From a virus, in IMG/VR virus record IMGVR_UViG_3300042988_000227, positions 1 to 20,256 of that record: a DNA stretch of 20,256 nt. One strand, given 5' to 3'. Made by a program: the position numbers and the translations under genes. The notes below the pieces were generated by a model. That model made no database searches. It was not told the DNA's origin and saw only the letters and a list, made by a program, of their open reading frames with translations. This document shows, piece after piece, positions 12 to 19,495 of this stretch. Positions within the stretch are counted from its first letter, which is position 1. Every line of letters begins with the position of its first letter.

Positions 12-1934
12 ATGCCTGATCGCAATCAACTGCCGATGCTCTCGACCCGGGCCGCGCTGCAGCCGAAGACCTTCGACGCCGAGCGCCGAACGGTCGAACT
101 GACCTGGAGCACGGGCGCGACCGTCCGCCGGTTCGACTGGCTCGATGGTCCGTACCTGGAAGAGCTGAGCATGGACCCGGCCCATGTCCGCATGGACCGC
201 CTCAACACCGGGGCGCCGCTGCTGGGTAACCACAACGCGTCCGACCTGTCCGGCGTCATCGGCGTGGTCGAACGCGCCTGGCTGGATGACGGCAAGGGCC
301 GCGCCATCGTGCGCTTTTCGGAGCGCGCCGATGTCGAACCGATCCTGGCCGACGTGAAGGCAGGTATTCTCAGGAATATTTCGGTCGGTTATCAGGTCCA
401 CGAATACGAAGTTGAAAAACCCACGGAGCGCGGCGGCATGCCGTTGTATCGCGCCACCGACTGGGAACCGATGGAAGTCTCCATCGTTACCGTCCCTGCG
501 GATGCGTCCGCGCAAGTCCGCGGCTCGCAAGAGTTGCACCCTGTCACTATCACTTTGAGGAACCCGGCCATGTCCGACCCCAACGAAAAATCCCCGGTGG
601 AAGACGCGCCGGAAACCCCGATCGAAGAGCCCACCGAAGCACCGGCTGACGAATCCGCCATCAGCGCACGCGCGCTGAAAATCGAGCGCACTCGGGTCGC
701 CGGCATCCTGGATGCTGTCCGCACGGCGCGGCTGGATCAGTCGATGGCCGACAAGCTGATCGCATCCGGAAAGGCGCTGGACGAATGCCGGGCCGACGTG
801 ATCCGCGCCTGGTCCGCATCCGTCGACAAGACCGCGACCCCGTCGCGTGTCGAATCCGGAATGGCGGCGGAAGACAAGGCGCTGCGTGGCGCCGAGCAGG
901 CGATGTTGTATCGCGCCGGATTCTGCAAGGACGACCTGACCAACAACGAGTACCGCGGCTTGCGCCTGACCGATCTCGTCCGCATGAGCCTGGAGCGCTC
1001 CGGGGTCCGCACCGTCGGCATGTCGTATGACCAGATGGCGCAGACGATCCTGCGCCAGCAGACGACCAGCGACTTCCCGGTGCTGCTCGAAAACACCATG
1101 CACAAGATGTTGCTCGCATCCTACGCGGCAGCACCTGATCAATGGCGTGCCATTGCCAAGGTCGGCAGCGTGTCCGACTTCCGCGCGTGGAAGCGGCTGC
1201 GTACCGGCACCATCGGCAACCTCGACGTCGTGCTGGAAGGCGGCGAACTGACCAACAAGACCATCGGTGATGCGGTGGCCGAGTCGGTGCAGGCGGCCCG
1301 CTACGGCAACATCATCTCGGTCACTCCCGAGACGATCGTCAACGACGACCTGGACTACATCGCATCGCAAACCTCCGCGCTGGGCCGAGCCGCAGCACGC
1401 ACGGTCGAAGCGGCCGTGTTCGCCAAGATCGTCGCCAATCCGACGATGGGTGATGGCGAAGCGCTGTTCTCGGCGGCACATGCCAACCTGCAAGGGTCCG
1501 GTGGCGCCATCAGCGTGGCAACCCTGGAAGCTGGCCGCGTGGCCATGGCTTCGCAGATGGATGTGGACGGGAACGATTACCTCAACATCCGGCCGGCAGT
1601 GCTGGTCACCACGATCGCCGAGGGCGGTTCCGCTCGCGTCGTCGTCAACGCGGTCTATGACCCCGACACGGCGAGCAAGCTGCAGCGGCCGAACATGGTC
1701 AACGGCCTGGTCGGGACGATTGTCGATACGCCGCGGGTTCCGGTTGGCTTTTACCTGTTCGCCAATCCGGCCGACGCGCCCGTCATCGAGGTCGTGTTCC
1801 TCGACGGCAACCAGACGCCACGGATCGCGCAGGAAGAGAACTTCCGCACGAAGGGTCTGTCGTGGTCGGTCGAGCTGCCATTCGGCGTGGGCGTCATCGA
1901 CTACCGCGGCGCCTACTTCAACGACGGCGCATAA
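12..1934 (+). CDS. Prohead protease - major capsid protein fusion
   Basis: This 640-residue protein joins a capsid-maturation protease to the major head subunit, so one gene supplies both shell and processing enzyme. Residues 1-180 look like the HK97/U35 prohead protease fold. A His in LLGNHN (H74), a Ser in RNISVGY (S124) and a Glu in WEPMEVSIVTVPAD (E155) sit where the family's catalytic residues are expected. Residues 187-290 are acidic, proline-rich and then helical, as expected of a scaffold or delta region. Residues 290-640 resemble the major capsid domain found in such fusions (Mu gpT-like/Phage_capsid family), ending in a beta-rich segment. The start follows a GGAG motif 6 bases upstream. 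Family assignment comes from remembered motifs; catalytic roles are inferred by position. An internal start at residue 187 has its own ribosome binding site and is listed separately. Confidence 0.9.
   Translation: MPDRNQLPMLSTRAALQPKTFDAERRTVELTWSTGATVRRFDWLDGPYLEELSMDPAHVRMDRLNTGAPLLGNHNASDLSGVIGVVERAWLDDGKGRAIVRFSERADVEPILADVKAGILRNISVGYQVHEYEVEKPTERGGMPLYRATDWEPMEVSIVTVPADASAQVRGSQELHPVTITLRNPAMSDPNEKSPVEDAPETPIEEPTEAPADESAISARALKIERTRVAGILDAVRTARLDQSMADKLIASGKALDECRADVIRAWSASVDKTATPSRVESGMAAEDKALRGAEQAMLYRAGFCKDDLTNNEYRGLRLTDLVRMSLERSGVRTVGMSYDQMAQTILRQQTTSDFPVLLENTMHKMLLASYAAAPDQWRAIAKVGSVSDFRAWKRLRTGTIGNLDVVLEGGELTNKTIGDAVAESVQAARYGNIISVTPETIVNDDLDYIASQTSALGRAAARTVEAAVFAKIVANPTMGDGEALFSAAHANLQGSGGAISVATLEAGRVAMASQMDVDGNDYLNIRPAVLVTTIAEGGSARVVVNAVYDPDTASKLQRPNMVNGLVGTIVDTPRVPVGFYLFANPADAPVIEVVFLDGNQTPRIAQEENFRTKGLSWSVELPFGVGVIDYRGAYFNDGA
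557..572 (+). promoter_or_regulatory. Internal ribosome binding site and start inside the protease-capsid fusion
   Basis: GAGG at 557-560 lies nine bases before an in-frame ATG at 570 (Met187 of the fusion). The ATG falls exactly between the protease domain and the acidic scaffold-like linker. Initiation here would give a 454-residue scaffold plus capsid protein without protease, running to the same stop at 1934. Lambda (C/Nu3) uses the same logic, a nested in-frame start, to make scaffold in excess over protease. The site is seen in the sequence; its use is inferred. Confidence 0.5.
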
Positions 1935-1990: not shown

Positions 1991-2755
1991 ATGGCGACCA
2001 ATCAAGTTTACGAAGGCGAGGTGCTGAGCCTTCTGGAATCGGCACTCACTCACCCGGCGCGCACTGGCAATCTGGTCGAATCCGGCGACCCGGTCTTCGT
2101 CGGATCGCTGGTCGGGGTTGCTCTTGACTCGGCCGATGCGGACACCGACACCGTCCGCGTGGCGACCGAAGGCGTCTGGGAACTGGCTGTGACGGCGACC
2201 ACCGCAACGGCGGACAGCGCCATCGCGGTCGGCGACAAGCTCTACTTTCAGGGCACTGAAACCAAGGCCACCGGCACCATCACCTCCGATGCGACGGCAC
2301 CCTCCGATGGCGACACCGTGACGATCGGAACGACCGTCTACACCTACAAGACGGCGCTGACCACCAGCCCGGCGGCGGTGCCCTACGAGGTGCTGATCGG
2401 CGTGTCGGCTGCGGTTGCGCTGGACAATCTGAAGCTGGCCATCAACGCCACCGAAGGCGGCGCCGGCAGCACTTACGGCACCGGCACCGTGGCGCACCCG
2501 ACCGTCGAGGCCACGACCAACGCCAACACTACGCAGGTAGTGCAGGCGCTGACCGCAGGCCAGGCCGGCAACGATATCGCCACCACCGAAACCTCGTCGC
2601 ACCTCGCCTGGGGCGCCACGACCATGTCCGGCGGCAGTGCGGCGTCAACCCTCACCAAAACATCCACCGATCTGGGATTCGGCGTGGCACTGGGCACGGT
2701 TGCAGCCGGCCAGGCCGACACGATCCCGGTCAAGCTCAAGAGGAAGCAAATCTGA
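1991..2755 (+). CDS. DUF2190-type capsid decoration protein with an inserted domain
   Basis: This 254-residue protein follows the major capsid gene, the usual place for a decoration or head-stabilising protein. It starts with MATNQVYEGEVLSL, close to the next gene's MATNYVQEGEVLPL, so the two are paralogs. DUF2190-like sequence covers residues 1-93 (including VRVATEGVWEL and GDKLYF) and resumes at about 218-254. Between them, residues about 94-217 form a separate module with GDTVTIGTTVYTYK, YEVLIGVSA, LDNLKLAIN, YGTGTVAHP and GNDIATTE. I recognise this as a mobile beta-rich module seen in many phage virion proteins, here inserted near the end of the core fold. It would probably project from the capsid surface. 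The start has AGAGGA upstream; the stop overlaps the next start (TGATG). Confidence 0.8.
   Translation: MATNQVYEGEVLSLLESALTHPARTGNLVESGDPVFVGSLVGVALDSADADTDTVRVATEGVWELAVTATTATADSAIAVGDKLYFQGTETKATGTITSDATAPSDGDTVTIGTTVYTYKTALTTSPAAVPYEVLIGVSAAVALDNLKLAINATEGGAGSTYGTGTVAHPTVEATTNANTTQVVQALTAGQAGNDIATTETSSHLAWGATTMSGGSAASTLTKTSTDLGFGVALGTVAAGQADTIPVKLKRKQI
2270..2641 (+). other. Inserted virion beta-domain within the first DUF2190 gene
   Basis: These bases encode residues about 94-217. Flanking residues align with both ends of the 113-residue paralog encoded immediately downstream, which lacks this stretch; that defines it as an insertion. Motifs GDTVTIG, VLIGVSA, LDNLKLAIN, TGTVAHP and TAGQAGNDIATTE mark a module that I recall recurring in phage structural proteins. 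Boundaries are good to about ten residues. Confidence 0.7.
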
Positions 2756-3096
2756 TGGCCACGAATTACGTTCAAGAAGGCGAAGTGTTGCCGCTCGTTG
2801 CGCCATACACCCGCACCGCCGGCCAGGGCGCCAAGGTCGGCTCGATCTTCGGCGTGGCATTGGTCGATGTGACCAGCGCGGCGACGGCATCGTTCGCCAC
2901 CGAAGGCACCTGGGATCTCACCAAGGCCGGGTCCGAAGCCTGGGCGACCGTCGGTCTTCCGATCTACTGGGACGACTCGGCCAAGGCCTGCACGACCACG
3001 TCCGGTGCGAACTTGCTGATCGGCGTCAACGTTGCGACGGTTGCCGGTGGTGCGGGTGATACCACCGGCCGGGTCCGACTGAACGGCGTGTTCTGA
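2755..3096 (+). CDS. DUF2190-type capsid decoration protein
   Basis: At 113 residues this has the normal size of a DUF2190 protein, thought to decorate or stabilise HK97-fold capsids. Family-like features are MATNYVQEGEVLPL at the start, FATEGTWDLTKA in the middle, and IYWDDSAKACTT then LIG and GRVRLNG near the end. It is the uninterrupted paralog of the gene just upstream and also matches the first 105 residues of the protein encoded at 8976-9947. The start overlaps the upstream stop (TGATG), with AGGA at 2741-2744 in a suitable place. The decoration role is inferred from family and position. Confidence 0.82.
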   Translation: MATNYVQEGEVLPLVAPYTRTAGQGAKVGSIFGVALVDVTSAATASFATEGTWDLTKAGSEAWATVGLPIYWDDSAKACTTTSGANLLIGVNVATVAGGAGDTTGRVRLNGVF

Positions 3097-6726: not shown

Positions 6727-8262
6727 ATGGCACTTTTTAGAAGAATCAAGCCACCGTTCAGCCTCAAGACGCTGCAGAAAGATCCATCCTGCGTCCTGAT
6801 CCAAGACCCGTCCGCCATCTGGGGCGGGGCGGATCATTTACCGAGGCGGAATCTTCTGATCGCGACCGATACTCTTGCCACGCAGAATGTGACGGTGACA
6901 GCGGAAAGCCACACGCTCCATATCCAAGGAACCGGATCGGTAACGCTATCAGGTACTGGTAGCGGTACTTTATCCGGTACGGGCGCGAATGATCGGGTTT
7001 CGTTGGTATTCACTCCGACGGCCGGCACGTTGACCTTGACAGTGAGCGGAACGGTCACGTTCGGCATGCTCTGCAAATCGTCTGTGCTTGATCGCGGCTA
7101 CCAAAAAATCACCGACTGGACGACAGAGCAATACGCCCACGCCGCGACGAATCCTAAGCCGTGGCTGAGGCGTAATCGGTTGCTCAATACCGCAACGCTC
7201 TCGACGCAGACGGTGACAGCAGTCACGGCGAATCCCATGACCGTGAGCTTTACAGGGACCGGGACGATTACTTTCTCGACCGCCTACAGCGGTTCTCTCG
7301 TCGGCACAGGAGCAAGCGACCGGGTAACCGCGACATTCACCCCTGCGGCTGGCAATCTCGTCTGTACGGTCACGGGAACCGTAACGCTGGCGCAGGTTGA
7401 AGTAGGCAGCGCGGCGACGCCTTATCAAGAAGTCGGAGCATCATGGGCCGCAACCTACACCTCCCTCGCCATCGCCGCAGGCTACCCGATCTCACTCTAC
7501 AGCGACCGCGCCGGGACCGTGGCGACGTATGGGCCGGATGATCCGGTTGGTGTGTTGCTGGATGGCAGCGAAGGGTATGCGATGGGTCCAGAGTTGGTGA
7601 CGAATGGGACGTTAGCAACAGATACCGGGTGGACCAAAGGAACCGGATGGACCATAGACGGTGTTGGCAACTGCTCAAATGCGTCTGCCGCGAGCCTTGC
7701 TCAAAGCATTTCGATAACAACTGGCAAGCGGTATCTGGTATCTGGATCAGTGCTGACTTGCACATCAGGCATGGTAAGACTGTTGGCAGACGGTACGGAT
7801 ATCGTTGCGGCTCAGTCTGCATCAACTGGATATCGACAAACGATTGTAGTTGCAACATCGACTGGCGCAAGCGACTTTGGATTTCGATCTAACTCATCCG
7901 GTTTTGCTGGTACGGTTGATAATTTCTCCGTTCGCGAAATCCCCGGCTACCACGCTACCTCACCATCAGACGCCGCGCGCCCGGTCCTGAGACTCGACGG
8001 CAACGGTCGGTGGTATCTGGATCGGGACACGACGGATGACGCATTAGCCGTCACCTGGCCCGCGAACTTCACCACGACTGCCGCGCAGTATGTTGCCGAC
8101 CAGACAACAACCACAGAAACGACCGGCATCACGCTCAACGGTGCGACCAGTTACACCACGCCGCAGCGACCAACCGGTGATTACGGCAGAGTGATATTCA
8201 AGACGCCAACGTCGAACGCGGCCAAAGTGAACAAGTATCTCGACAAGAAGGCGGGGAGATAG
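6727..8262 (+). CDS. Fibre-like protein with repeated carbohydrate-binding-type modules
   Basis: A 511-residue protein that looks like a modular receptor-binding fibre or adhesin. Residues 41-115 and 149-234 are two copies of a Thr/Gly beta module (LATQNVTVTA / LSTQTVTAVT; TGANDRVSLVFTPTAGTL / TGASDRVTATFTPAAGNL). Residues about 289-405 look like a CBM_4_9-type sandwich beginning GPELVTNGTL and ending GTVDNFSVREIPG. Residues 418-435 (RPVLRLDGNGRWYLDRDT) look like the start of a lectin-like domain that is then cut short, followed by a Thr-rich tail. Base composition is lower than the rest of the window (about 50% G+C over 7681-7920 by hand count), suggesting recent acquisition. The ribosome binding site is weak. 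The receptor is unknown. Confidence 0.68.
   Translation: MALFRRIKPPFSLKTLQKDPSCVLIQDPSAIWGGADHLPRRNLLIATDTLATQNVTVTAESHTLHIQGTGSVTLSGTGSGTLSGTGANDRVSLVFTPTAGTLTLTVSGTVTFGMLCKSSVLDRGYQKITDWTTEQYAHAATNPKPWLRRNRLLNTATLSTQTVTAVTANPMTVSFTGTGTITFSTAYSGSLVGTGASDRVTATFTPAAGNLVCTVTGTVTLAQVEVGSAATPYQEVGASWAATYTSLAIAAGYPISLYSDRAGTVATYGPDDPVGVLLDGSEGYAMGPELVTNGTLATDTGWTKGTGWTIDGVGNCSNASAASLAQSISITTGKRYLVSGSVLTCTSGMVRLLADGTDIVAAQSASTGYRQTIVVATSTGASDFGFRSNSSGFAGTVDNFSVREIPGYHATSPSDAARPVLRLDGNGRWYLDRDTTDDALAVTWPANFTTTAAQYVADQTTTTETTGITLNGATSYTTPQRPTGDYGRVIFKTPTSNAAKVNKYLDKKAGR
6847..7071 (+). repeat. Carbohydrate-binding-like module, copy A
   Basis: Encodes residues 41-115 of the 511-residue fibre-like protein. 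It matches copy B (7171-7428) through RN.L...DTLATQ, GTG.GTLSGTGANDRV, FTPTAG and SGTVT. The similarity is at protein level; the DNA copies have diverged, so the duplication is not recent. Confidence 0.7.
7171..7428 (+). repeat. Carbohydrate-binding-like module, copy B
   Basis: Encodes residues 149-234, the second copy of the Thr/Gly beta module. It carries RNRLLNTATLSTQ, GTGASDRVTATFTP and TGTVTLAQVEVGSAA. The last part (AQVEVGSAATPYQ) extends beyond copy A, which breaks off at FGML, so copy A may be shortened. Confidence 0.7.
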
Positions 8263-8713: not shown

Positions 8714-8976
8714 CCACCTTCAAGTATCAGTTGACTCCCGACCAATACGCTAGGTTCCAGCACGAATCCAACACCCGCGAGATCCAGGTGTTAGGCAAGC
8801 CGCTCGGGGTGCTGGTGCAGGATGGACCGTCACCGCAGTCCTGGACATTCAGCGGCAAGATGGAAGGCGGCGCGTGGATCGACAAGTCGTTGCTGCTGAC
8901 CATCGTCATCCGCCGGAGACCCTGGTGGGCGTTCGGTTGGCTTCTCGACTCGGCATTCAAGGCGGCACTCAAATAA
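8710..8976 (+). CDS. Small protein of unknown function
   Basis: An 88-residue product starting MTTFKYQLTPDQYARF. The ATG at 8710 is preferred over an upstream in-frame ATG at 8599 because GGAGG lies 11 bases before it, it overlaps the preceding stop (ATGA), and the residues coded upstream look like frame shadow. Residues 57-88 contain LLLTIVIRRRPWWAFGWLLDSAFKAALK-like hydrophobic and aromatic sequence that could lie on a membrane, but it is interrupted by RRR. No family recognised. It overlaps the next start by one base (TAATG). Confidence 0.6.
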   Translation: MTTFKYQLTPDQYARFQHESNTREIQVLGKPLGVLVQDGPSPQSWTFSGKMEGGAWIDKSLLLTIVIRRRPWWAFGWLLDSAFKAALK

Positions 8977-9947
8977 TGGAAACGCAGACCGGCAATATCC
9001 TCGCATTCACCGCACCGTATGCCGTCACGCCAGGCGATGGCGCGCTGGTTGGGGCGTCCTTCGGTGTGTCGACCGGCACGTTCGCCCTCGGTGCGCGTGG
9101 CACGTTCGACCTGTCCGGCGTGTTCGAGTTGGCAAAGGCATCCGCGCAGGCCTGGGCCGAGGGCGCGGCGATCTACTGGGACAATAGCGCCAAGAAATGT
9201 ACCACCGTCTCGACGGCGAACACCCTGATCGGTGCGGCTGCCGCTGCTGCCGCCAACCCGTCGAGCACCGGATCGGTGCGGTTGAATGGCGGGGCGGTGC
9301 CAATCACCTCGCTGCTGGACGGAAAGGCCGACGCTGACCACGACCACGATGCAGCGTATGCGGCGATCGATCACGACCACGATTCGGCGTATCTGGCGAT
9401 CGGCGCGCCTCCGGTCCTGACTGGCGCGAATACCGTGTGGGAGGATCTGCGCTTCCCCGCACAGGCCATCAACCCACCGGGAAACGTCGACGATGCGGAC
9501 ATCGAGCCCGCCACCGGCTGTCTTCTGTTCGACGCGAGCGCCACGGAAGTGTGCATGGGTGTCGCTCAGCTGCCGCATGCCTGGAAGCAAGGATCCGCGA
9601 TTCGCGCGCATCTTCACTGGACACCGACCAGCACCAACACCGGGAACGTCTACTGGCGGCTCGACTACCAGGTGAAGAACATCGGCGAGACGTTCGACTT
9701 CTCGGCCGGCTGGACGACGGCGAACACACTGGACGCCGCGGATGGGGTGTCAGGGAAGCATCAGATTCATCAGCTCGCCGAGATCACGATGACTGACAAG
9801 ACGGTGAGCTGCATGATTCACTGGAAACTCTCCCGCATCGGCGGCGACGGGACGGACACCTACACGGCGGACGCCCGGTTGTTGGAGTTCGACATTCACT
9901 ACGAGGTCGACTCGATGGGCTCCGATGAAGAGCTGACGAAGGCCTGA
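8976..9947 (+). CDS. DUF2190 domain fused to a fibre domain (candidate head fibre)
   Basis: A 323-residue chimera. Residues 1-105 are a third copy of the DUF2190 fold: ARGTFDLSGVFELAKA, IYWDNSAKKCTT, LIG and TGSVRLNG match the decoration protein at 2755-3096. Residues 121-142 are two exact-length 11-residue units, DHDHDAAYAAI and DHDHDSAYLAI, the His/Asp type found in phage fibres, sometimes metal-binding. Residues 150-323 form a beta-rich terminal domain with IRAHLHWTPTST, VYWRLDYQVKN and DARLLEFDIHYEVDS, a pattern I recall from phage fibre tips. A capsid-binding domain plus a fibre suggests a fibre attached to the head, though a tail location is possible. The ATG at 8976 overlaps the upstream stop and begins the recognisable domain. 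Confidence 0.72.
   Translation: METQTGNILAFTAPYAVTPGDGALVGASFGVSTGTFALGARGTFDLSGVFELAKASAQAWAEGAAIYWDNSAKKCTTVSTANTLIGAAAAAAANPSSTGSVRLNGGAVPITSLLDGKADADHDHDAAYAAIDHDHDSAYLAIGAPPVLTGANTVWEDLRFPAQAINPPGNVDDADIEPATGCLLFDASATEVCMGVAQLPHAWKQGSAIRAHLHWTPTSTNTGNVYWRLDYQVKNIGETFDFSAGWTTANTLDAADGVSGKHQIHQLAEITMTDKTVSCMIHWKLSRIGGDGTDTYTADARLLEFDIHYEVDSMGSDEELTKA
9336..9401 (+). repeat. Tandem 11-residue His/Asp repeat in the head-fibre candidate
   Basis: Two adjacent units, DHDHDAAYAAI and DHDHDSAYLAI, differ at two of eleven positions. They link the DUF2190 domain to the fibre domain. Alternating His and Asp could coordinate a metal along a trimer axis, as in known phage fibre stalks; this is inferred. 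Confidence 0.8.
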
Positions 9948-9949
9948 CG

Positions 9950-12661
9950 ATGGCTGACCAGAAACTCGCCGTCGAGATCATCTTTGACGCGGTCGACAAC
10001 GCGTCCAAGCAGATCAGTTCGATCTCAAGCCAGTTTGGCGAACTGGATCAGAAGGCGCGCGGCATGGCGCAGCCGTTCGCTGAGTTCGCCTCGGGCTTGC
10101 TGAAAACCGAGGCGGCGCTCCTCGCTGTCGGCGCTGCGCTGGTGGGCGTGGCCGTCGACAAGGCCGGCAAGTTCGGCGACCAGATTGCCGAGATCGGCAC
10201 CCTGTTCGGTGGCACGACAGAGCAGATGGCCGGCTTCTCCGCTGGCGTGCTGGAATACGGCGAAAGCTCGACCCAATCGCTCGAGTCTGTCAACAACGCC
10301 GTCTACTCGGCCATTTCGGCGGGCGTCAAATACGACGACGCGCTCGGCCTGGTCGCCGAATCCGAGAAGCTCTCGGTCGCCGGCCGCGCGGAACTGGGCG
10401 AAGTCACGAAAGTCCTGACCGGATCGCTCAACGCCTACGGCGCCGCAACCTCCGACGCCGGCAAGTTTTCCGACATCCTGTTCGCGACCGTGAAGGGTGG
10501 CCAAACGACGCTGCCGGAATTGTCCGCATCGCTCGGCCAGGTCACGTCCATTGCCGCGACAGCCGGCGTGCCGTTCGGCACCCTCGGCGCCGCAATCTCG
10601 ACGCTGACCGCCTCTGGTGTCGGCACCTCGGAAGCCATCACCGGCATCAAGTCCGCGCTGTCGAACATCATCCAGCCGACCAGCGAGGCGGAAAAAGCCG
10701 CGGCCGCGCTCGGCGTCAACTTCGGCGTGGCTGCGCTGAAGTCTGAAGGCCTGGACGGCATGCTCAAGCAGCTGATGGCGGCGACCGGCGGCAACGTCGA
10801 CCAGATGGCGCAGTTCTTCGGCAGCGTCGAGGCGCTCAATTCCGTGATGGCGCTCGGCCAAGATGGGGCCGGAAAGTTCTCCGGCGCAATCGCCGACATG
10901 GCCAACTCGACCGGCGCGACTGAGAAAGCATTTGCCGCGATGGCCGAGAATTACTCGCTCAGCATGCAGAAGATGGCCAACGCGGCGGACGTTGCGCTGA
11001 TCAAGATGGGCAAGCCGCTGATGGATGAGTTCGGCGGTGTGGCCGACGCCATCGCCGGCATCTTCAAGGGCTTGGGCACCGGCCTGGATGCTGGCGCATT
11101 CGACCCGATCATCAACCTGCTGGAGCGATTCGGCCAACAAGCCGCGGACACCCTCAACGCGATCGGGAAAAACCTGCCCGAGGCGCTGGAGTCGCTGGAT
11201 TTTTCCGACTTGGTTCGGAGCCTGGAGGATCTGGGCACGACCGTCGGCGACCTGTTCGAGAAGATGTTCGGCGAGGTTGATCTCTCGACGCCCGAAGGCT
11301 TATCGGAAGCGCTGCAGAAGGTCGTCAACATCATCACCGGCCTGGTCGACGTGACGCGCGGGATCGCGACCCAGTTCGGCCCGTTCTTCGATGTGCTGGG
11401 CGGCCTTGCGGAGAACGCCGGCAAGCTCGGCGAAGAGTCATCGGTGTCTTTCGGCAAGTTCCTGGGCGCGATGGAGATGCTGTCCAGCTTCGGTGCAGGC
11501 ATCGCCACCGTCAACGCCATCATCGTGGAGCTCGGCGCCGACATCAGCGGCATCGCGGACGTGGTCATCGGGCTGTCAAAGGCCATCGTCAACGGCTTTC
11601 AGGTCGCGTTCGATACGGTCGTTGGCACGTTGGTCAGCTTCGCCAAGGACTTTGTCGACGTGATGGAGGGCATCACGCCTGACGTGCTCGGCGATCCCTG
11701 GAAGGACATGTCCAAGGAGTTGGGCTACGTACTCGACGGCGTGTCGGCGAACTGGGAGAAGAACAACGGCGAGTTCGTGGCCGGCATCAACCAGATCGGC
11801 GCCGGCCTCGGCTTCGTCGGTGACAGCGCCAGCGATGCGGCCAAGGGCGCCGAGGAATTGAAGACCCCGATCACCGAAGCGGCGACCGCCTCGAAGGGAT
11901 TCGAGCCGATCGACCTGGGTGATGTCGATTTCGTCGCCGAAGCGGCGAAGCGGCTGGGCGTGAATCTGACCGAGGCCAAGGTGGCGACCGAAGCGCTCAC
12001 CGGATCCGCGGACCTGATCGCACCTGAATGGGCCAGCGCCGAGGACAAGGCGCGCGGCTACAAGATCGTGATGGACGAGCTGGGCCAGGTCTCGTACAAG
12101 CAGGTCGGCGCGGCGGCGAAGGATGCCGGCGGCGCGGTGACCGAGTCGATGAAGGAGCAGCAAGACCAGATCGACAAGGCCGCGAAAGCCGCCCAGGACT
12201 GGGCGCTCAAGATGGAAGAGATCGCCAGTAACGAGCGTATCAAGACTATCGAGGCGGTCATCTCGCTCAACGTCGCCGAACTGGAGGCGCAGACGGCGAT
12301 GGTCGAGGCCTCGTTCGATTCGATCAACACCACCATCGAGTCGACCGGCAGCCTCATCGGCGACCTGTTCGGCCAGATGGACGGCAAGACGCTCGGCGAG
12401 AAGTTCGATATCCAGGCGCAGATCTCCCTGGAAAACAAACGCCGGCAGGATGCGCTTGATCTGCAGAAGAAGCTGGTCGAGGCGCAGGTGGACTACCTGA
12501 CCAAGCGCGCGTCCGCACTCGATCGTGGCGATGCGCTGATCCGCGTCGAGGCGGATGGACTGCAGCCGGCACTGGAACAAATCTGGTACGAGATCATGCG
12601 ATCGATCCAGGTGAAGGCGGCCGACGAAGGCCTTGAACTACTGCTCGGGGTGATGTCCTGA
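9950..12661 (+). CDS. Tail tape measure protein (TP901 type)
   Basis: A 903-residue protein that sets tail length and passes through the tube. Residues about 70-290 match the TP901-type core: IAEIGTLFGGTTEQM, SLESVNNAVYSAISAGVKYDDAL, VAGRAELGEVTKVLTGSLNAYG, GQTTLPELSASLGQVTSIA and ALGVNFGVAALKSEGLDGML. Residues 49-68 and about 500-560 are hydrophobic helices. The C-terminal third is charged and helical (from about 740: KEQQDQIDKAAKAAQDWALKMEE), suited to chaperone binding. No lysozyme or peptidase motif is seen. At roughly 0.15 nm per residue the tail would be about 135 nm, an inference from the known rule. The start follows the upstream stop by two bases; the stop overlaps the next start (TGATG). 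Confidence 0.93.
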   Translation: MADQKLAVEIIFDAVDNASKQISSISSQFGELDQKARGMAQPFAEFASGLLKTEAALLAVGAALVGVAVDKAGKFGDQIAEIGTLFGGTTEQMAGFSAGVLEYGESSTQSLESVNNAVYSAISAGVKYDDALGLVAESEKLSVAGRAELGEVTKVLTGSLNAYGAATSDAGKFSDILFATVKGGQTTLPELSASLGQVTSIAATAGVPFGTLGAAISTLTASGVGTSEAITGIKSALSNIIQPTSEAEKAAAALGVNFGVAALKSEGLDGMLKQLMAATGGNVDQMAQFFGSVEALNSVMALGQDGAGKFSGAIADMANSTGATEKAFAAMAENYSLSMQKMANAADVALIKMGKPLMDEFGGVADAIAGIFKGLGTGLDAGAFDPIINLLERFGQQAADTLNAIGKNLPEALESLDFSDLVRSLEDLGTTVGDLFEKMFGEVDLSTPEGLSEALQKVVNIITGLVDVTRGIATQFGPFFDVLGGLAENAGKLGEESSVSFGKFLGAMEMLSSFGAGIATVNAIIVELGADISGIADVVIGLSKAIVNGFQVAFDTVVGTLVSFAKDFVDVMEGITPDVLGDPWKDMSKELGYVLDGVSANWEKNNGEFVAGINQIGAGLGFVGDSASDAAKGAEELKTPITEAATASKGFEPIDLGDVDFVAEAAKRLGVNLTEAKVATEALTGSADLIAPEWASAEDKARGYKIVMDELGQVSYKQVGAAAKDAGGAVTESMKEQQDQIDKAAKAAQDWALKMEEIASNERIKTIEAVISLNVAELEAQTAMVEASFDSINTTIESTGSLIGDLFGQMDGKTLGEKFDIQAQISLENKRRQDALDLQKKLVEAQVDYLTKRASALDRGDALIRVEADGLQPALEQIWYEIMRSIQVKAADEGLELLLGVMS

Positions 12662-13813: not shown

Positions 13814-14914
13814 ATGGCCGCCAACGACCCGAGCTTCGCCAGCGTCAAGCTCTTGTTGCATTGCGACGGGGCCAACGATGGCACGACCTTCACGGACGTG
13901 AAGGCGCACACGCTCACCCGCGGCGGGAATACCGTCACCAAGACCGGCGAGAAGAAGTACGGGACGGCGTCGGTTTATTTCGACGGGACGGGCGACTACC
14001 TGTCGTGCACCAGTTCCGACTTCAACCTCGGCACGGGCGACTTCACCATCGAATTCTGGTTTTTCCCGGTCGATGGCGGGCATGGTGGCGCGTATGCGCG
14101 GATCCTGGCGATCGGCGCGGACGCCACCTCTGGCGGTCTCTACATCGTCGCCAATAATACCGACAACCCCTTGACCTTCCTGATCCAGGGACACAACGGA
14201 TCGGCCTACGTCAACTTGCTGGATTACGTGGCGACTGGGGTTACGGACGACACTTGGCACCATTTCGCGCTGGTCCGGGCCTCTGGCGTGTACACCGCCT
14301 ACGTCGATGGCGTGCAGTACGCGACCAAGACCTACAGCTACACCCACACCACCACCGCGCTGGTACTCGGTTCCGGAACGACCGGGGCGAACGCATTCAA
14401 AGGCTACCTGGACGACGTCCGCATCACGGTCGGCGTGGCACGTTACACCGACACGTTCACGCCACCAACCGCAGCGCATCCCGAATACGATCGATACCTA
14501 GCCGGCACGATCACCGAGGACACCGATCACACCGACTTTGTCGTCCGCGCGCATCGGCTGGACACCGGAGCACTAGCCGGCGAACTGGCATCGACTGGCG
14601 GCGCCTACGAGATCCCGGTCATGATCTCCGGGTCCGGGTATGCCGGGCCTGTCATGCTCTCGGCGTATCAGAAGCTCGGCACGGTGTGGGCTGCCAACAC
14701 CGCCTACGCATCCGGCGCCTACGTGTTCCCGCCTGATCCGGTCGCCGCGCCGCATGTCTTCAAATGCACCGGTGCCGGCACCTCGCACTCGACGACCGAA
14801 CCGACCTGGGACACCACGCCCGGCAACACCACGTCTGACGGCGGCGTGACCTGGGCCTGCCAGGGCCGCATGGTGCAGCCAATCCTGCAAGGTCCGCTGA
14901 TCCCGAGCCTCTGA
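13814..14914 (+). CDS. LamG/concanavalin-like adhesin with C-terminal chitin-binding-like segment
   Basis: A 366-residue protein for probable surface binding. Residues 10-218 form a laminin-G/concanavalin A-like domain: VKLLLHCDGANDGTTFTD, GTASVYFDGTGDYLS, FTIEFWFFP, TWHHFALVR, YVDGVQYAT and KGYLDDVRITVGVARYT are all in family order. Residues 228-285 form a short beta domain (AGTITEDTDHTDFVVRAHRLDTG). Residues 290-350 (VWAANTAYASGAYVFP, HVFKCTGAGTSH, TEPTWDTTPG, DGGVTWAC) resemble a CBM5/12-like module with aromatic ligand platforms (W292, W332). The ribosome binding site is weak. The ligand is unknown; a glycan is the natural guess. Confidence 0.8.
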   Translation: MAANDPSFASVKLLLHCDGANDGTTFTDVKAHTLTRGGNTVTKTGEKKYGTASVYFDGTGDYLSCTSSDFNLGTGDFTIEFWFFPVDGGHGGAYARILAIGADATSGGLYIVANNTDNPLTFLIQGHNGSAYVNLLDYVATGVTDDTWHHFALVRASGVYTAYVDGVQYATKTYSYTHTTTALVLGSGTTGANAFKGYLDDVRITVGVARYTDTFTPPTAAHPEYDRYLAGTITEDTDHTDFVVRAHRLDTGALAGELASTGGAYEIPVMISGSGYAGPVMLSAYQKLGTVWAANTAYASGAYVFPPDPVAAPHVFKCTGAGTSHSTTEPTWDTTPGNTTSDGGVTWACQGRMVQPILQGPLIPSL

Positions 14915-14915
14915 C

Positions 14916-15929
14916 GTGGCCGAGTACACGCCGACCGTCGATCTCGACTTCACCTCGGCGACCTACACGCCGTCCGCCGATTTCGACTTCGTCACCGCCG
15001 TCACCTACAACCTGGCGTTCGGCCAGGCATGGGAACTCTCGGCGCCGGCCATCGGCGATGTCGCACTGACGCAGCAATGGCTGCTGGATGCGCTGCAGAC
15101 CGCGAACCTGTCGGCATCGATGCGCTGGGCGCTGCTGACTACCACCGTGCGCGATGTGTCGCCCGGGTTCGTCTGGGCTCAGTCCGCCGCGACCTTCGGC
15201 AACCGCACGGCCAACTTTGCCTACGGCCTGGAGGTTCCAGCGTTCGCGGATGTGTCGCCGAGCCAGTCCTGGGCGCTGACGATCTACGACTACTCCGACA
15301 TGCCGTCTGACTTCGGCTGGGCGCTGGATGCGATCGAGGCCGTCGATGAGTTGTCGTTCCGGCAGGCCTGGAGGCTGCAAGCGACGGCGGTCTGGACGCG
15401 CGTCGTCAGCGCGACGACCTACACGCTGACGCTGACCGGCGAGGCCGACAGCACGACCGACCTGACGCTGCCGATGGGGTCCTTCTCCTCCCGGCTGCGG
15501 TCGGGAAACACCAGCTACCTGCAGGTGTCGGTTCCCAACGCGCGCGCCTACGCCGCCGAGATTGCCGCACGGCCGAATGGCGAACTGGTTGTCGAGCGCG
15601 GTCTACGCTGGTCCGACGGCACGGTCGAGGTTTCCGAGATCGCCCGCGGTACGCTGTCGCGGATCGACATCGACACCGGATCCCGATCGTCCACGGCCTC
15701 ACTTCAAGCCGGCGGCACGACCACCAACAGCACACCGAAGACCGTGGCACTGGCCGGCGTGTCCTACAAGGCAAACTCGAACGGCTCGCGGCGGGTCCGG
15801 TCCAGCATCGACAACACCCTCCGGCCCGGCGATACCGCGACCTATGACGGCGAGACGATGGTGGTCGGCGACCTGGTGCATGTCGTCTCATCGCGTCAAG
15901 GTTACATGGAGCTGACGGAGGCGACCTGA
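14916..15929 (+). CDS. Tail hub-like protein with a 16-residue tryptophan repeat
   Basis: Starts at GTG one base after the previous stop; 337 residues. Residues 4-29 are two 13-residue units (YTPTVDLDFTSAT, YTPSADFDFVTAV). Residues 33-161 are eight units of about 16 residues centred on an aromatic: W39, W55, W71, W87, Y103, W119, W135 and W152, spaced 16 six times and 17 once, usually with Leu or Ala two to four residues later and Asp or Asn closing the unit. Residues about 165-337 (TLTLTGEADSTTDLTLPMGSF, YLQVSVPNARAYAAEIAARP, SRRVRSSIDNTLRPGDTA) match a domain I recall in phage minor tail proteins near the central hub. The stop overlaps the next start (TGATG). Role inferred from that domain and from the neighbouring central tail protein. 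Confidence 0.65.
   Translation: MAEYTPTVDLDFTSATYTPSADFDFVTAVTYNLAFGQAWELSAPAIGDVALTQQWLLDALQTANLSASMRWALLTTTVRDVSPGFVWAQSAATFGNRTANFAYGLEVPAFADVSPSQSWALTIYDYSDMPSDFGWALDAIEAVDELSFRQAWRLQATAVWTRVVSATTYTLTLTGEADSTTDLTLPMGSFSSRLRSGNTSYLQVSVPNARAYAAEIAARPNGELVVERGLRWSDGTVEVSEIARGTLSRIDIDTGSRSSTASLQAGGTTTNSTPKTVALAGVSYKANSNGSRRVRSSIDNTLRPGDTATYDGETMVVGDLVHVVSSRQGYMELTEAT
14925..15002 (+). repeat. Tandem 13-residue YTP repeat
   Basis: Residues 4-29 of the hub-like protein are two units, YTPTVDLDFTSAT and YTPSADFDFVTAV, sharing YTP and D.DF. Similar YTPP...F units recur in phage virion proteins and may be short beta strands binding another tail component. Confidence 0.7.
15012..15398 (+). repeat. 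Eight-unit 16-residue aromatic repeat
   Basis: Units begin near residues 33, 49, 65, 81, 97, 113, 129 and 146, with the aromatic at the seventh position (Trp in seven units, Tyr in the fifth). Examples are LAFGQAWELSAPAIGD, VALTQQWLLDALQTAN and VSPSQSWALTIYDYSD. DNA identity between units is low, so the period is held at protein level. A two-strand beta unit is likely; a solenoid or strand-rich spike is possible. Confidence 0.85.
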
Positions 15930-18900
15930 TGGGCCGCGCGACGGTTGTCTCACACCTCGGTGATGGCGAGTACCTGATCACACCGGATCCCGACCAGACC
16001 TACCTGGACGAGGAGATCCAGCGGCTCACCGAGCAACTCGCGACCGATTCCCCGCGGCTTGAGGCGGCGATCACCTCCGAAACTACCGCGCGCGCCGCGC
16101 TCGATGACGCGCAGGCCGGCATCGACACGATCATCCGCGAGGCTCAGGCCGCGAACAATGCGCTGCTGCTCGCGCTCCAGGCGGCGATGGACGATCTGGA
16201 CGACGCGACCACCGCGGAGCAGAACCAGCAGACCGCGATCAACGGCATGGTCGCCGACCAGACCGCGCAGCTGGCGGTCTACGACCAGGCGATCGAGGAT
16301 CTGAAGGCGCAACTGGCCGAGGCGACGACCCCGGAGCAACGGGCCGCGATCCAGTTGCAGATCGATGAAACCGAGACGGCCAAGACCGCCTACGAGCTCA
16401 ACACCAACACCGCCATCACCGCTGCCTATAACGACCTGATGGCGCTGAAGGCGACCACAAAGGCCAAGCTCGGCGTCGTCAATGGCGCGCAGCAGACCTG
16501 GAACGATCGCGACCAGAAACTGGCCGAGATCCGCACGGCGATGGATGGGGCGGAGCCGCTTAAGGTTGCCTGGTACAAGGCGCGCGATGATCGGGCCGCG
16601 CTGCAACTCAAGCTGGCGGCGATGGCGCATGATATCAAGTGGCTGGAGGCCAAGCGCAAGACGCCCGCTGACACGTCAGCATGGTGCGCGGATCTAACCG
16701 AAACCCTCACGGGTGCCGTGGCCACTGTCGAGATCCCGGGCGAAACGGTCGGCGTGCCGGTGCTGATCCGGCCGGGGTATGAAGGCCGCGCGGTTTGGCA
16801 GGCGCAGGAGCAGCACGCCGCGTTGGTCGATGCCGTGCTGGCCGCACAGGACGGTTGCCTGTCGGCGCAATCGCTGGCGGACCTCGCGCGTCTCAACCTC
16901 GATGCCGCCAAGCAGCGCCGAGACGGGGCGGCTGCAACGCTCGCGCTGCTGCAGGCCGATCCCGATGCACTGCCGGCGCTGATCGTCTCCGCGCAAGCAC
17001 TGCTGGAGGCTGCCGAAACAACGGTGACGACCGCCGAGGCGTCGGTTACAACCGCCGAGCAACGCATCGTCACGACACGCGCTACGGCAACCGCAGCACG
17101 GGCCGCGCTACAGGCCGCGCGGGATGCCGCCGTGGCCGATGGTGCGACACCCGATCCGCGCATGGCAGACGGCCGCATGCAGCCGGTGGCGTCGTCTTCA
17201 CCCTGGGCCAGTTTCTGGAATCGCGCCGTGCTGCCGGCCTGGCAGAAATGGCGACCGATGTACCGTCTCGGCGAGATCGCCGAGTTGGCCGGCGATACCT
17301 GCACGGTCATGCTCGATGCCGCCTTCTCCAGCCAGCAGGCGATCGACATCAATCGCGAAACCGAGCTGACCGGCGTGCCGATCGTCTACATGGAATGCAA
17401 CGGCGACGCGTTCGAGGCCGGCGACCGGGTCGTCGTGGAGTTTGCCTACCACGACCAGACCAAGCCGCGTGTGGTGGGGTTCGAGTCACATCCGCGCGCG
17501 TGCCAGGCGGGCCACGGCATCTTCGTCACGCCCGCGTCGGAGCGTTCACCGATCGGATTCGGCTATCCATTCACCGCCAACGAAGGCTGGGGCAAGCCGG
17601 GCGTCACGGCGGCGTCACTCATCAAGGCCTCGGAACTGCCGGCGCCATCTGAAATGGGCGGGCTCGGCTTCCAGGTGCTGATAGCGCCATCCGGCAGCAC
17701 AAGCAAGTACCTGTACGGCGAGCAGCGGCGGGAGTTGGTGCTCCGTGATACAACCATCCTCGGCGGGGCAGTGGCGGTCACTGGTCCGCTCGATGCCTCC
17801 TGCTACGACCAGTCCGGCCGGCTCAAGCCGTCGGCTCGATTCGATGTCTATTCGATTGCGAACAACTACCTGGGTCCGCTCGGGACGTGGCACTCGAACT
17901 ACCGCATCCGACAATTCGACAAGGCGCTGCAGTCCGAAGGCATCGCCGCGATGGATGGCGATACCAGCGTGATGCTCACACATCCGCGTCGGTTCGGGAT
18001 GAACGAAGCCTCTCCGATCTACAAGAACGGCGCCGCGATGGATTACACGATCTCCGATCCGAATCACGTCGGCGCTCACTCGGACGGGTACACCTATGCG
18101 CCGGTCACGGCGCGCCATGCGGTCGGGCTTGCCATTCGGAATGTGACGGCAGGGTCGGAGACGGTGCGGCGGATGGTGGCGCTGTTCGTGGCCGGCCGGC
18201 AGCAGTTTGAGGGCACGATCTTCTATCACCACTACCTGCTTGCGTGGGCCGACCCGCCGTATTCATCGTTCACCTGCTCACAACTGATCGATATCAACTA
18301 CCCGAACTTCCCGTCAAATAGGACGGATGACAACCAGGCGTTTCCGTATCAGACGAGAATCTTTTTCCAAAGCAACGAATCGGGGACACGCATGTCGGCC
18401 GTTGCGGGCGGGTTTCCACCCGACTTCGACAGTGCATACATCGACCACCCTGGCACGCAGCCGGTCTACTTGCGCGTGATCCATCTGGACATCGCAGCCG
18501 ATGGCAAATCGTGCGCGATCGTTACGGAGCCTCGCAATGTTGTGCCGGAGCTGGCATCGATCGTGGACCCTTGGGATGGAAGCGATGGGCTGCCTCCTCC
18601 CGGATATTCTGGATCAAGCGAGATTCAGACGGTGCCGATCACCTACGCGATTGCCTACGACCGCGACACCGAAAAACGCCTGACGGTCGCTTTTTCTGAG
18701 ACCCGGACAGCCTCCCGGACCGGCGCCGGTTGGAACTACACGGAAGCCTACGAGGGCAGCACTCTCGTCACCTTCCAGATCGGAGGGGCAGTGGTGCAGG
18801 GCTCCGTCACATACCAGACGGTGACGCAATACGTAGGCGACGGGGGCACTGCTCCGACGACCGACACCAGCGAGGATGTCGCGCTGCTGTTGGGTGTCGA

Positions 18901-19495
18901 CTTCGTGCACGACAAGATCTACTTCGAGCGATTGAAGGCGGACTACCATGTCGTTGGTGAGCCGGGCTGGCACGACTACGCCTACACGGCGACTCATACC
19001 TATCAGCTATGCAGCAGCGATGCTGTGATCTGGTCCGGCAGCGGATCGCTGGTCTACCCGGATCTACCGCCGGTCACCGACCTGTCCAAAACGCTCGGAC
19101 TGGGCCTGAAGGCGGGCTACTCCTACCTCTGGTCGATGGTGCTGGACGGGTACAGCACCACCATGCCGATCCGATCCGGCGCGACGGACTCGGGACTGTA
19201 TGCGGGCGCGTATTTCCCGAGGTCGTGGTATGCCTCGGACGCCTACGGCAACACCCTGTTCGTGTGCTACGTCCCGCGCGTCATCCTGCCCGGCGACCCG
19301 GAAAGTTCCGGCGGGATCAATTTCAGCTATCGCGGGTTTCCCAACGATTGGAACGGGCAGATGCACATGGATCAGTTCCCGGACGGCATCCAGATCGCCA
19401 GGCTGATCCGCAATGATGGCACGGTCGTGGAGCTTTCCGAGGTGTTCACCGTGCCAGGCGTCAACAAGGGCTGGAAATTCGCGGGAGTCTTCTGA
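15929..19495 (+). CDS. Central tail / baseplate protein with two long coiled coils
   Basis: This 1188-residue protein is the largest in the window. Residues 1-20 (MGRATVVSHLGDGEYLITPD) start a small beta domain. Residues 24-245 are a continuous heptad-like helix region rich in Ala, Gln and Glu. Residues 251-285 (AWCADLTETLTGAVATVEIP, then VLIRPGYEG) return to the beta domain, residues 286-403 form a second coiled coil, and residues 425-522 resume a beta domain (AVLPAWQKWRPMYRLGEI, GDTCTVMLDA, GVPIVYMECNG, AFEAGDRVVVEF). I recognise this interrupted core from phage central tail proteins. Residues 525-1188 are beta-rich and unassigned, a plausible receptor-binding part. GGAGG precedes the ATG, which overlaps the upstream stop. 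No lambda J, NlpC/P60 or peptidase signature is seen. Confidence 0.7.
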   Translation: MGRATVVSHLGDGEYLITPDPDQTYLDEEIQRLTEQLATDSPRLEAAITSETTARAALDDAQAGIDTIIREAQAANNALLLALQAAMDDLDDATTAEQNQQTAINGMVADQTAQLAVYDQAIEDLKAQLAEATTPEQRAAIQLQIDETETAKTAYELNTNTAITAAYNDLMALKATTKAKLGVVNGAQQTWNDRDQKLAEIRTAMDGAEPLKVAWYKARDDRAALQLKLAAMAHDIKWLEAKRKTPADTSAWCADLTETLTGAVATVEIPGETVGVPVLIRPGYEGRAVWQAQEQHAALVDAVLAAQDGCLSAQSLADLARLNLDAAKQRRDGAAATLALLQADPDALPALIVSAQALLEAAETTVTTAEASVTTAEQRIVTTRATATAARAALQAARDAAVADGATPDPRMADGRMQPVASSSPWASFWNRAVLPAWQKWRPMYRLGEIAELAGDTCTVMLDAAFSSQQAIDINRETELTGVPIVYMECNGDAFEAGDRVVVEFAYHDQTKPRVVGFESHPRACQAGHGIFVTPASERSPIGFGYPFTANEGWGKPGVTAASLIKASELPAPSEMGGLGFQVLIAPSGSTSKYLYGEQRRELVLRDTTILGGAVAVTGPLDASCYDQSGRLKPSARFDVYSIANNYLGPLGTWHSNYRIRQFDKALQSEGIAAMDGDTSVMLTHPRRFGMNEASPIYKNGAAMDYTISDPNHVGAHSDGYTYAPVTARHAVGLAIRNVTAGSETVRRMVALFVAGRQQFEGTIFYHHYLLAWADPPYSSFTCSQLIDINYPNFPSNRTDDNQAFPYQTRIFFQSNESGTRMSAVAGGFPPDFDSAYIDHPGTQPVYLRVIHLDIAADGKSCAIVTEPRNVVPELASIVDPWDGSDGLPPPGYSGSSEIQTVPITYAIAYDRDTEKRLTVAFSETRTASRTGAGWNYTEAYEGSTLVTFQIGGAVVQGSVTYQTVTQYVGDGGTAPTTDTSEDVALLLGVDFVHDKIYFERLKADYHVVGEPGWHDYAYTATHTYQLCSSDAVIWSGSGSLVYPDLPPVTDLSKTLGLGLKAGYSYLWSMVLDGYSTTMPIRSGATDSGLYAGAYFPRSWYASDAYGNTLFVCYVPRVILPGDPESSGGINFSYRGFPNDWNGQMHMDQFPDGIQIARLIRNDGTVVELSEVFTVPGVNKGWKFAGVF

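What the first reader, a model, noticed from the sequence alone, without database searches (positions are those of the whole stretch)
15012..15398. Eight-unit 16-residue tryptophan repeat in a tail hub-like protein
Aromatics fall at residues 39, 55, 71, 87, 103, 119, 135 and 152, a period of 16 kept for seven units and 17 once. I do not know this repeat by name. It could be a new beta-solenoid or a row of aromatic ligand sites at the tail tip, next to two glycan-binding-like proteins.
Basis: partly seen in the sequence, partly recalled or inferred. Interest (0 to 1): 0.75.

Follow-up and report, generated by a model that had tools for sequence, protein, structure and literature searches.

The report
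Repeat-built arm on phage tail hub
The tail-tip hub protein of this uncultured phage carries in front of its conserved hub domain a chain of eight 16-residue repeats, each marked by a tryptophan or tyrosine; related phages carry different repeat chains at the same spot, often with a sugar-binding-like head on the end, so the chain is probably a spacer arm that holds out the part that finds the host.

Summary
ORF 14916-15929 has aromatics at exactly residues 39, 55, 71, 87, 103, 119, 135 and 152, and lag-16 self-similarity is far above chance (z = 6.9; lag 32, z = 6.0). Residues 164-337 form a confidently modelled tail-hub fold (T4 gp27 / Mu gp44 / VgrG type), so 'tail hub-like' is right. The repeats match no Pfam, PHROG, NCBIfam or PDB entry. 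AlphaFold2 gave no confident structure for them, nor for in-register repeats of relatives, so a monomeric beta-solenoid is not supported, and nothing shows that the tryptophans bind ligands. About 80 hub-domain relatives show what the array is: a tandem array of 16-23-residue units recurs immediately before the hub domain (29 of 73 testable proteins, versus 2/85 and 0/41 controls). It often lies between the hub and a LamG or SPRY head, is absent in some phages, differs by one unit in two close pairs, and evolves far faster than the hub. Best reading: a variable-length spacer or shaft arm carrying receptor-binding heads on the trimeric tail hub, with this phage's lectin head encoded by the gene upstream. 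The fold and the function are inferred.

The parts
14916..15929 (+). Tail-hub protein, 337 aa (GTG start): leader, repeat arm, hub domain
   Evidence: ORF; kept in L002 with dN/dS of about 0.05 over the hub domain and 0.45 over the repeats
14925..15009 (+). Leader with duplicated Y-T-P-(x)n-D-F/L-D-F motif (39-bp DNA repeat, 2.1 copies)
   Evidence: TRF; a similar YTPP-type leader begins relatives that lack a fused LamG head (0 of 10 such proteins have one)
15012..15398 (+). Eight-unit 16-residue array, aromatic codons at 15030, 15078, 15126, 15174, 15222 (Tyr), 15270, 15318 and 15369
   Evidence: lag-16 z = 6.9; unit consensus x-D/N-V/L-S-x-x-F/Q-x-W-A-L-x-A-x-x-V/F
15405..15926 (+). Conserved hub domain, residues 164-337
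   Evidence: AlphaFold2 pLDDT about 90; Foldseek hits to phiTE, Pa193 and E217 baseplates, Mu gp44, T4 gp27, VgrG; profile A4 with about 80 relatives
13814..14914 (+). LamG / concanavalin-A-like ORF directly upstream (stop one base before the GTG); probable head of the arm, encoded separately here
   Evidence: PF13385 E = 1e-19; LamG lies fused N-terminal to the array and hub domain in 28 relatives
15929..19495 (+). Downstream tail-tip protein: coiled coil, conserved region at about 17168-17503 (OB-like by inspection), variable C-terminal half
   Evidence: A3 region found adjacent in relatives; first 540 codons 93% identical to L002, the rest 32%
9950..12661 (+). Tape-measure protein, places the locus in a siphovirus-type tail module
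   Evidence: PF10145 2e-30; PHROG tape-measure families

Best explanation
The ORF is a tail hub protein whose N-terminal repeat array is a spacer or shaft arm. The C-terminal domain (164-337) sits, presumably as a trimer, at the end of the tail tube (fold predicted here; trimer inferred from known hubs). The eight units project from it and place a receptor-binding head away from the tube. In many relatives that head (LamG, SPRY) is fused to the array; here the LamG head is a separate protein encoded directly upstream that probably docks on the N-terminal leader. Each unit is probably a beta strand plus turn, with the W/L/V positions packing against each other or against the same units of the partner chains; this is inferred from alternating hydrophobicity and the failure of monomer models. 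Losing or gaining one unit changes the arm length by a step.
For: Hub fold and its neighbours (lambda tip with trimeric hub gpL, PMC10721106). Tandem arrays of 16-23 residues directly before the hub domain in 29/73 relatives versus 2/85 (hub) and 0/41 (first 130 residues). Heads fused N-terminal to arrays: LamG in 28 proteins, SPRY in L053. Armless hubs with a pre-hub part of only 25-40 aa, so the arm is dispensable for the hub fold. One-unit length differences: window versus L002, L053 versus L054 (exactly 19 aa, otherwise identical). Against L002, tape measure, hub and the first half of the next protein are 93-97% identical, while the LamG ORF (39%), the repeats (64%) and the end of the next protein (32%) diverge together, as expected of exposed host-contact parts. 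Unit-averaged hydrophobicity has beta-like (170 degrees, p = 0.02) and not alpha-like (100 degrees, p = 0.90) periodicity.
Against: No structure of the array was obtained (pLDDT about 30), so it could be disordered. Residues 134-159 were drawn as a low-confidence helix. Docking of the separate LamG protein is not tested. Fast divergence could partly be recombination: dS is also raised in the repeats (0.54 versus 0.35). Many relatives show no significant periodicity.
Confidence: 0.55

Rival explanations
1. The array is an intrinsically disordered, low-charge, hydrophobic linker (elastin-like in the P-L-G-rich relatives) that only tethers the head or spaces the hub; the period reflects old duplications and stickers, not a fold.
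For: AlphaFold2 confidence about 30 in both runs; low charge (median 0.136 versus 0.202 in hubs); P/G-rich units in many relatives.
Against: Strict 16-residue register and all seven aromatics are kept in L002 while 36% of residues changed (Fisher p = 0.044); beta-type alternation in the unit average.
Confidence: 0.22
2. The repeats themselves are receptor-binding elements: a row of exposed tryptophans binds surface glycans.
For: High aromatic content (13.7%), position at the tail tip, fast divergence.
Against: W is specific to this pair; corresponding positions in relatives hold other hydrophobics or P-L-G; a dedicated lectin-like head exists next door; the aromatics are the best conserved positions, which fits a core rather than an adapting ligand site.
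Confidence: 0.1
3. A monomeric beta-solenoid.
For: The 16-residue period and beta-like alternation would fit a two-strand coil.
Against: No solenoid predicted for the window array or for the in-register repeats of relatives; no profile match to a known solenoid repeat.
Confidence: 0.08
4. The array acts inside the particle or in the envelope: amphipathic strands that bind the tape measure or insert in the outer membrane during DNA delivery.
For: Alternating hydrophobicity and low charge.
Against: Lectin-type heads are fused to the distal end in 28 relatives; the array diverges quickly while the tape measure is 97% conserved; armless hubs exist.
Confidence: 0.05

Closest known systems
Tail/baseplate hub proteins (T4 gp27, Mu gp44, VgrG N-terminal part, lambda gpL, E217/Pa193/phiTE hubs)
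   Same: Predicted fold of residues 164-337; gene lies after the tape measure; conserved core
   Different: No detectable sequence family (absent from Pfam, PHROGs and NCBIfam); carries an N-terminal tandem-repeat arm, not a feature of these hubs to my knowledge
Marinobacter siphophage PS3 protein ATN93332 (and ctUtU524 UOF79460)
   Same: Same hub domain (about 30% and 19% identity) and same neighbour; PS3 has LamG plus a short repeat-like region, ctUtU524 has a 21-residue array (z = 8.8)
   Different: No tryptophan 16-mers; both annotated only as hypothetical protein
Tail-associated tandem repeats such as the crAssphage BACON array (PMC6949934)
   Same: Tandem array in a tail gene, thought to serve host contact, expanding by unit duplication
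   Different: BACON units are whole Ig-like domains; the units here are 16-23 residues with no independent fold predicted
Trimeric fibre shafts with short repeats (triple beta-spiral; T4 gp5 triple-stranded beta-helix, PMC4576200)
   Same: Short repeats with alternating hydrophobics, attached to a trimeric hub; would explain failure of monomer models
   Different: No sequence match; no trimer model or structure; resemblance only

Membership tests
Phage tail hub (gp27/gp44/HDI type) | Tube-like hub fold | tested here: met
   pLDDT about 90; Foldseek E 1e-6 to 1e-4, probability 1.0, to many hubs
Phage tail hub (gp27/gp44/HDI type) | Gene in tail-tip module after the tape measure | tested here: met
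   same place in PS3 and ctUtU524
Phage tail hub (gp27/gp44/HDI type) | Sequence match to a described hub family | tested here: not met
   no Pfam/PHROG/NCBIfam hub match; one relative has a weak phrog_196 match (E 0.017)
Phage tail hub (gp27/gp44/HDI type) | Trimer at the tube end | not testable with these tools
   no complex prediction or map available
Beta-solenoid repeat | Regular coils in the predicted structure | tested here: not met
   pLDDT about 30; monomers with shallow alignments only
Beta-solenoid repeat | Profile match to a described solenoid repeat | tested here: not met
Triple beta-spiral / trimeric fibre shaft | Alternating hydrophobics with a turn (P/G) per short unit | tested here: inconclusive
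   beta-type alternation p = 0.02-0.07 in the window, stronger in some relatives; P-L-G turn motif in many relatives, not in the window
Triple beta-spiral / trimeric fibre shaft | Three chains wound together | not testable with these tools
   no complex prediction
Carbohydrate-binding aromatic array | Exposed aromatics that bind glycans | not tested
   needs a structure or a binding assay

The most novel reading that the evidence does not exclude
A so far undescribed class of siphovirus hub proteins carries, on the N-terminus of each hub chain, an extendable trimeric shaft made of short (16-23 residue) repeats of a new type. The repeat number acts as a ruler that sets the reach of swappable lectin heads, a way to attach receptor-binding heads that differs from a central fibre (gpJ-like) and from separate side fibres.
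Probability: 0.2. Interest if true: 0.7.

Novelty: new variant of a known kind. Interest (0 to 1): 0.48.

Why it matters
Tail tips are the most variable part of siphoviruses, and how receptor-binding heads are attached and exchanged is open for most uncultured phages. Here a conserved hub domain missing from the family libraries comes with a modular arm whose sequence, length and head change while the rest of the tail stays the same. That gives a sequence handle for finding the host-contact parts of many unannotated tail genes, and a testable idea (repeat number sets reach). One isolate with a relative exists (Marinobacter phage PS3).

Tried and rejected
Beta-solenoid: not supported by two AlphaFold2 runs. 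Known repeat family: none in Pfam, PHROGs, NCBIfam or PDB sequences. NCBIfam SDR and SMC hits and PDB oxidoreductase, SEL1 and TPR hits are far below cut-offs or biologically implausible, taken as chance. Recent DNA-level tandem duplication of the W units: rejected (TRF silent; 47% DNA identity between units). Frameshift fusion of the LamG ORF to the hub ORF: the relation is +1 in the window and -1 in L002 (positions), so not a conserved frameshift; coupled translation is likelier. Close relatives in bacterial genomes or plasmids (neighbour protein): none. Search by repeat region alone in isolated phages: none.

Full report
What is there. The window is a 20,256-base virus record with capsid, neck and tail genes. 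ORF 14916-15929 (337 aa) contains the pattern as described: W or Y at residues 39, 55, 71, 87, 103, 119, 135 and 152. Shuffling shows it is not chance: similarity at lag 16 is 6.9 SD and at lag 32 is 6.0 SD above expectation, and no shuffle reaches it at any lag tested. Around each aromatic the consensus is D/N-V/L-S at -7 to -5, F/Q at -2, A-L at +1/+2, A at +4 and V/F at +7. Units are 24% identical to one another in protein and 47% in DNA, and no DNA tandem array is called there. The repeat is therefore old and kept by selection on protein.

The protein. AlphaFold2 with 20 aligned relatives gives pLDDT of about 90 for residues 164-337 and about 30 for most of the arm. Foldseek matches are phage baseplate hubs (phiTE, Pa193, E217), Mu gp44, T4 gp27, R2 pyocin hub, VgrG and the lambda tube protein. 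The gene lies between the tape-measure module and a large tail-tip protein, so 'tail hub' is well supported. Hubs of this kind are trimers in lambda (gpL, PMC10721106); trimerisation here is inferred.

Relatives. One close relative (L002, IMG/VR) and about 80 distant ones were collected by profile, with hosts where known in Halomonas, Marinobacter, Dechloromonas, Desulfobulbales and others. The only isolated phage with the domain in 50,697 records is Marinobacter siphophage PS3; one further record is an uncultured assembly. The hub domain is absent from Pfam, PHROGs and NCBIfam. Directly before the hub domain, 29 of 73 testable proteins have a significant tandem period, nearly all 16-23 residues, while the same test finds 2 of 85 hub domains and 0 of 41 distal regions. 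The unit sequences differ by lineage: W-A-L 16-mers here, S-P-L-G 20/21-mers in many, V-P-Y-S-A-E-F 20-mers in L007, a near-perfect 21-mer in L043 (z = 13.5). Members are not independent, so the counts describe a tendency.

Architecture. In 28 proteins a LamG domain is fused in front of the array, in L053 a SPRY domain. Ten proteins begin instead with a duplicated Y-T-P-P-type leader, and none of these has a fused LamG; in the window and in L002 a separate LamG ORF ends at the start of the hub gene. Some hubs have almost no arm (pre-hub part 25-40 aa). The common pattern is head, array, hub, with exchangeable head and array.

Evolution. Between the window and L002 the tape measure, the next two ORFs, the hub domain and the first half of the downstream protein are 93-97% identical, while the LamG ORF (39%), the array (64%) and the second half of the downstream protein (32%) diverge. 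dN/dS is about 0.05 in the hub and 0.45 in the array; dS is also somewhat raised, so part may be recombination. L002 lacks one unit, the first, by an 18-residue gap. Independently, L053 and L054 differ only by one 19-residue unit. All seven shared aromatics are kept (7/7 against 60% elsewhere, Fisher p = 0.044), which is modest because tryptophan is generally conserved.

Structure of the array. A second AlphaFold2 run on a relative with six S-P-L-G units and 16 aligned sequences also gave pLDDT of about 30 for the array. The unit-averaged hydrophobicity of the window has a beta-like period (p = 0.02 at 170 degrees, 0.07 at 180) and no alpha-like period (p = 0.90); several relatives show the beta pattern more strongly, others not at all. 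This fits strands that need partner chains, as in trimeric shafts, but also a sticky disordered linker.

Interpretation. Shown: the repeat, the hub fold prediction, the family-wide position of short-unit arrays, fused heads, unit-number change, and joint divergence with the LamG ORF. Inferred: trimer, outward projection, head presentation, packing role of tryptophan, docking of the separate LamG protein. The best-supported reading is a length-variable spacer or shaft arm on the tail hub (0.55). A disordered linker (0.22), a glycan-binding array (0.10), a monomeric solenoid (0.08) and an internal or membrane role (0.05) remain.

Novelty. Hubs, LamG heads and tandem repeats in tail proteins are known kinds (for example BACON arrays, PMC6949934). 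This hub family with short-repeat arms, and this 16-residue aromatic repeat, were not found described in the libraries and open papers searched. I file it as a new variant of a known kind.

Noticed in passing
window 12-1934: Prohead protease (Peptidase_S78) and major capsid protein (Phage_capsid_4) are encoded as one fused ORF.
   Followed up: no
window 1991-2755, 2755-3096, 8976-9947: Three PF09956 cement-protein paralogues; the third lies in the tail region just before the tape measure and has a long extra C-terminal part.
   Followed up: no
window 13814-14914 versus L002:3952-5001: The LamG domain is N-terminal in the window ORF but inserted in the middle of the homologous ORF in L002, flanked by the same small modules: domain shuffling within the head gene.
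   Followed up: partly
window 15929-19495: Downstream tip protein: first 540 codons 93% identical to L002 (coiled coil plus conserved region), the rest 32%: probably a second exposed, exchanged segment.
   Followed up: partly
L121 / L032 (Halomonas olivaria prophage), hub gene: Hub domain split in two frames (profile 12-100 and 102-165): broken gene or frameshift.
   Followed up: no
L146 / L148 (genome G720, contig 166): Two hub-domain genes side by side in one proteobacterial genome.
   Followed up: no
L014, L016, L030, L072 and relatives: Halomonas-type armless hubs begin with a short L-N-S-x-x-L-N-S repeat instead of an arm.
   Followed up: no
window 6727-8262: 511-aa ORF with an internal duplication of a T/S/G-rich module (about 70-110 aa); no Pfam or PHROG match.
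   Followed up: no
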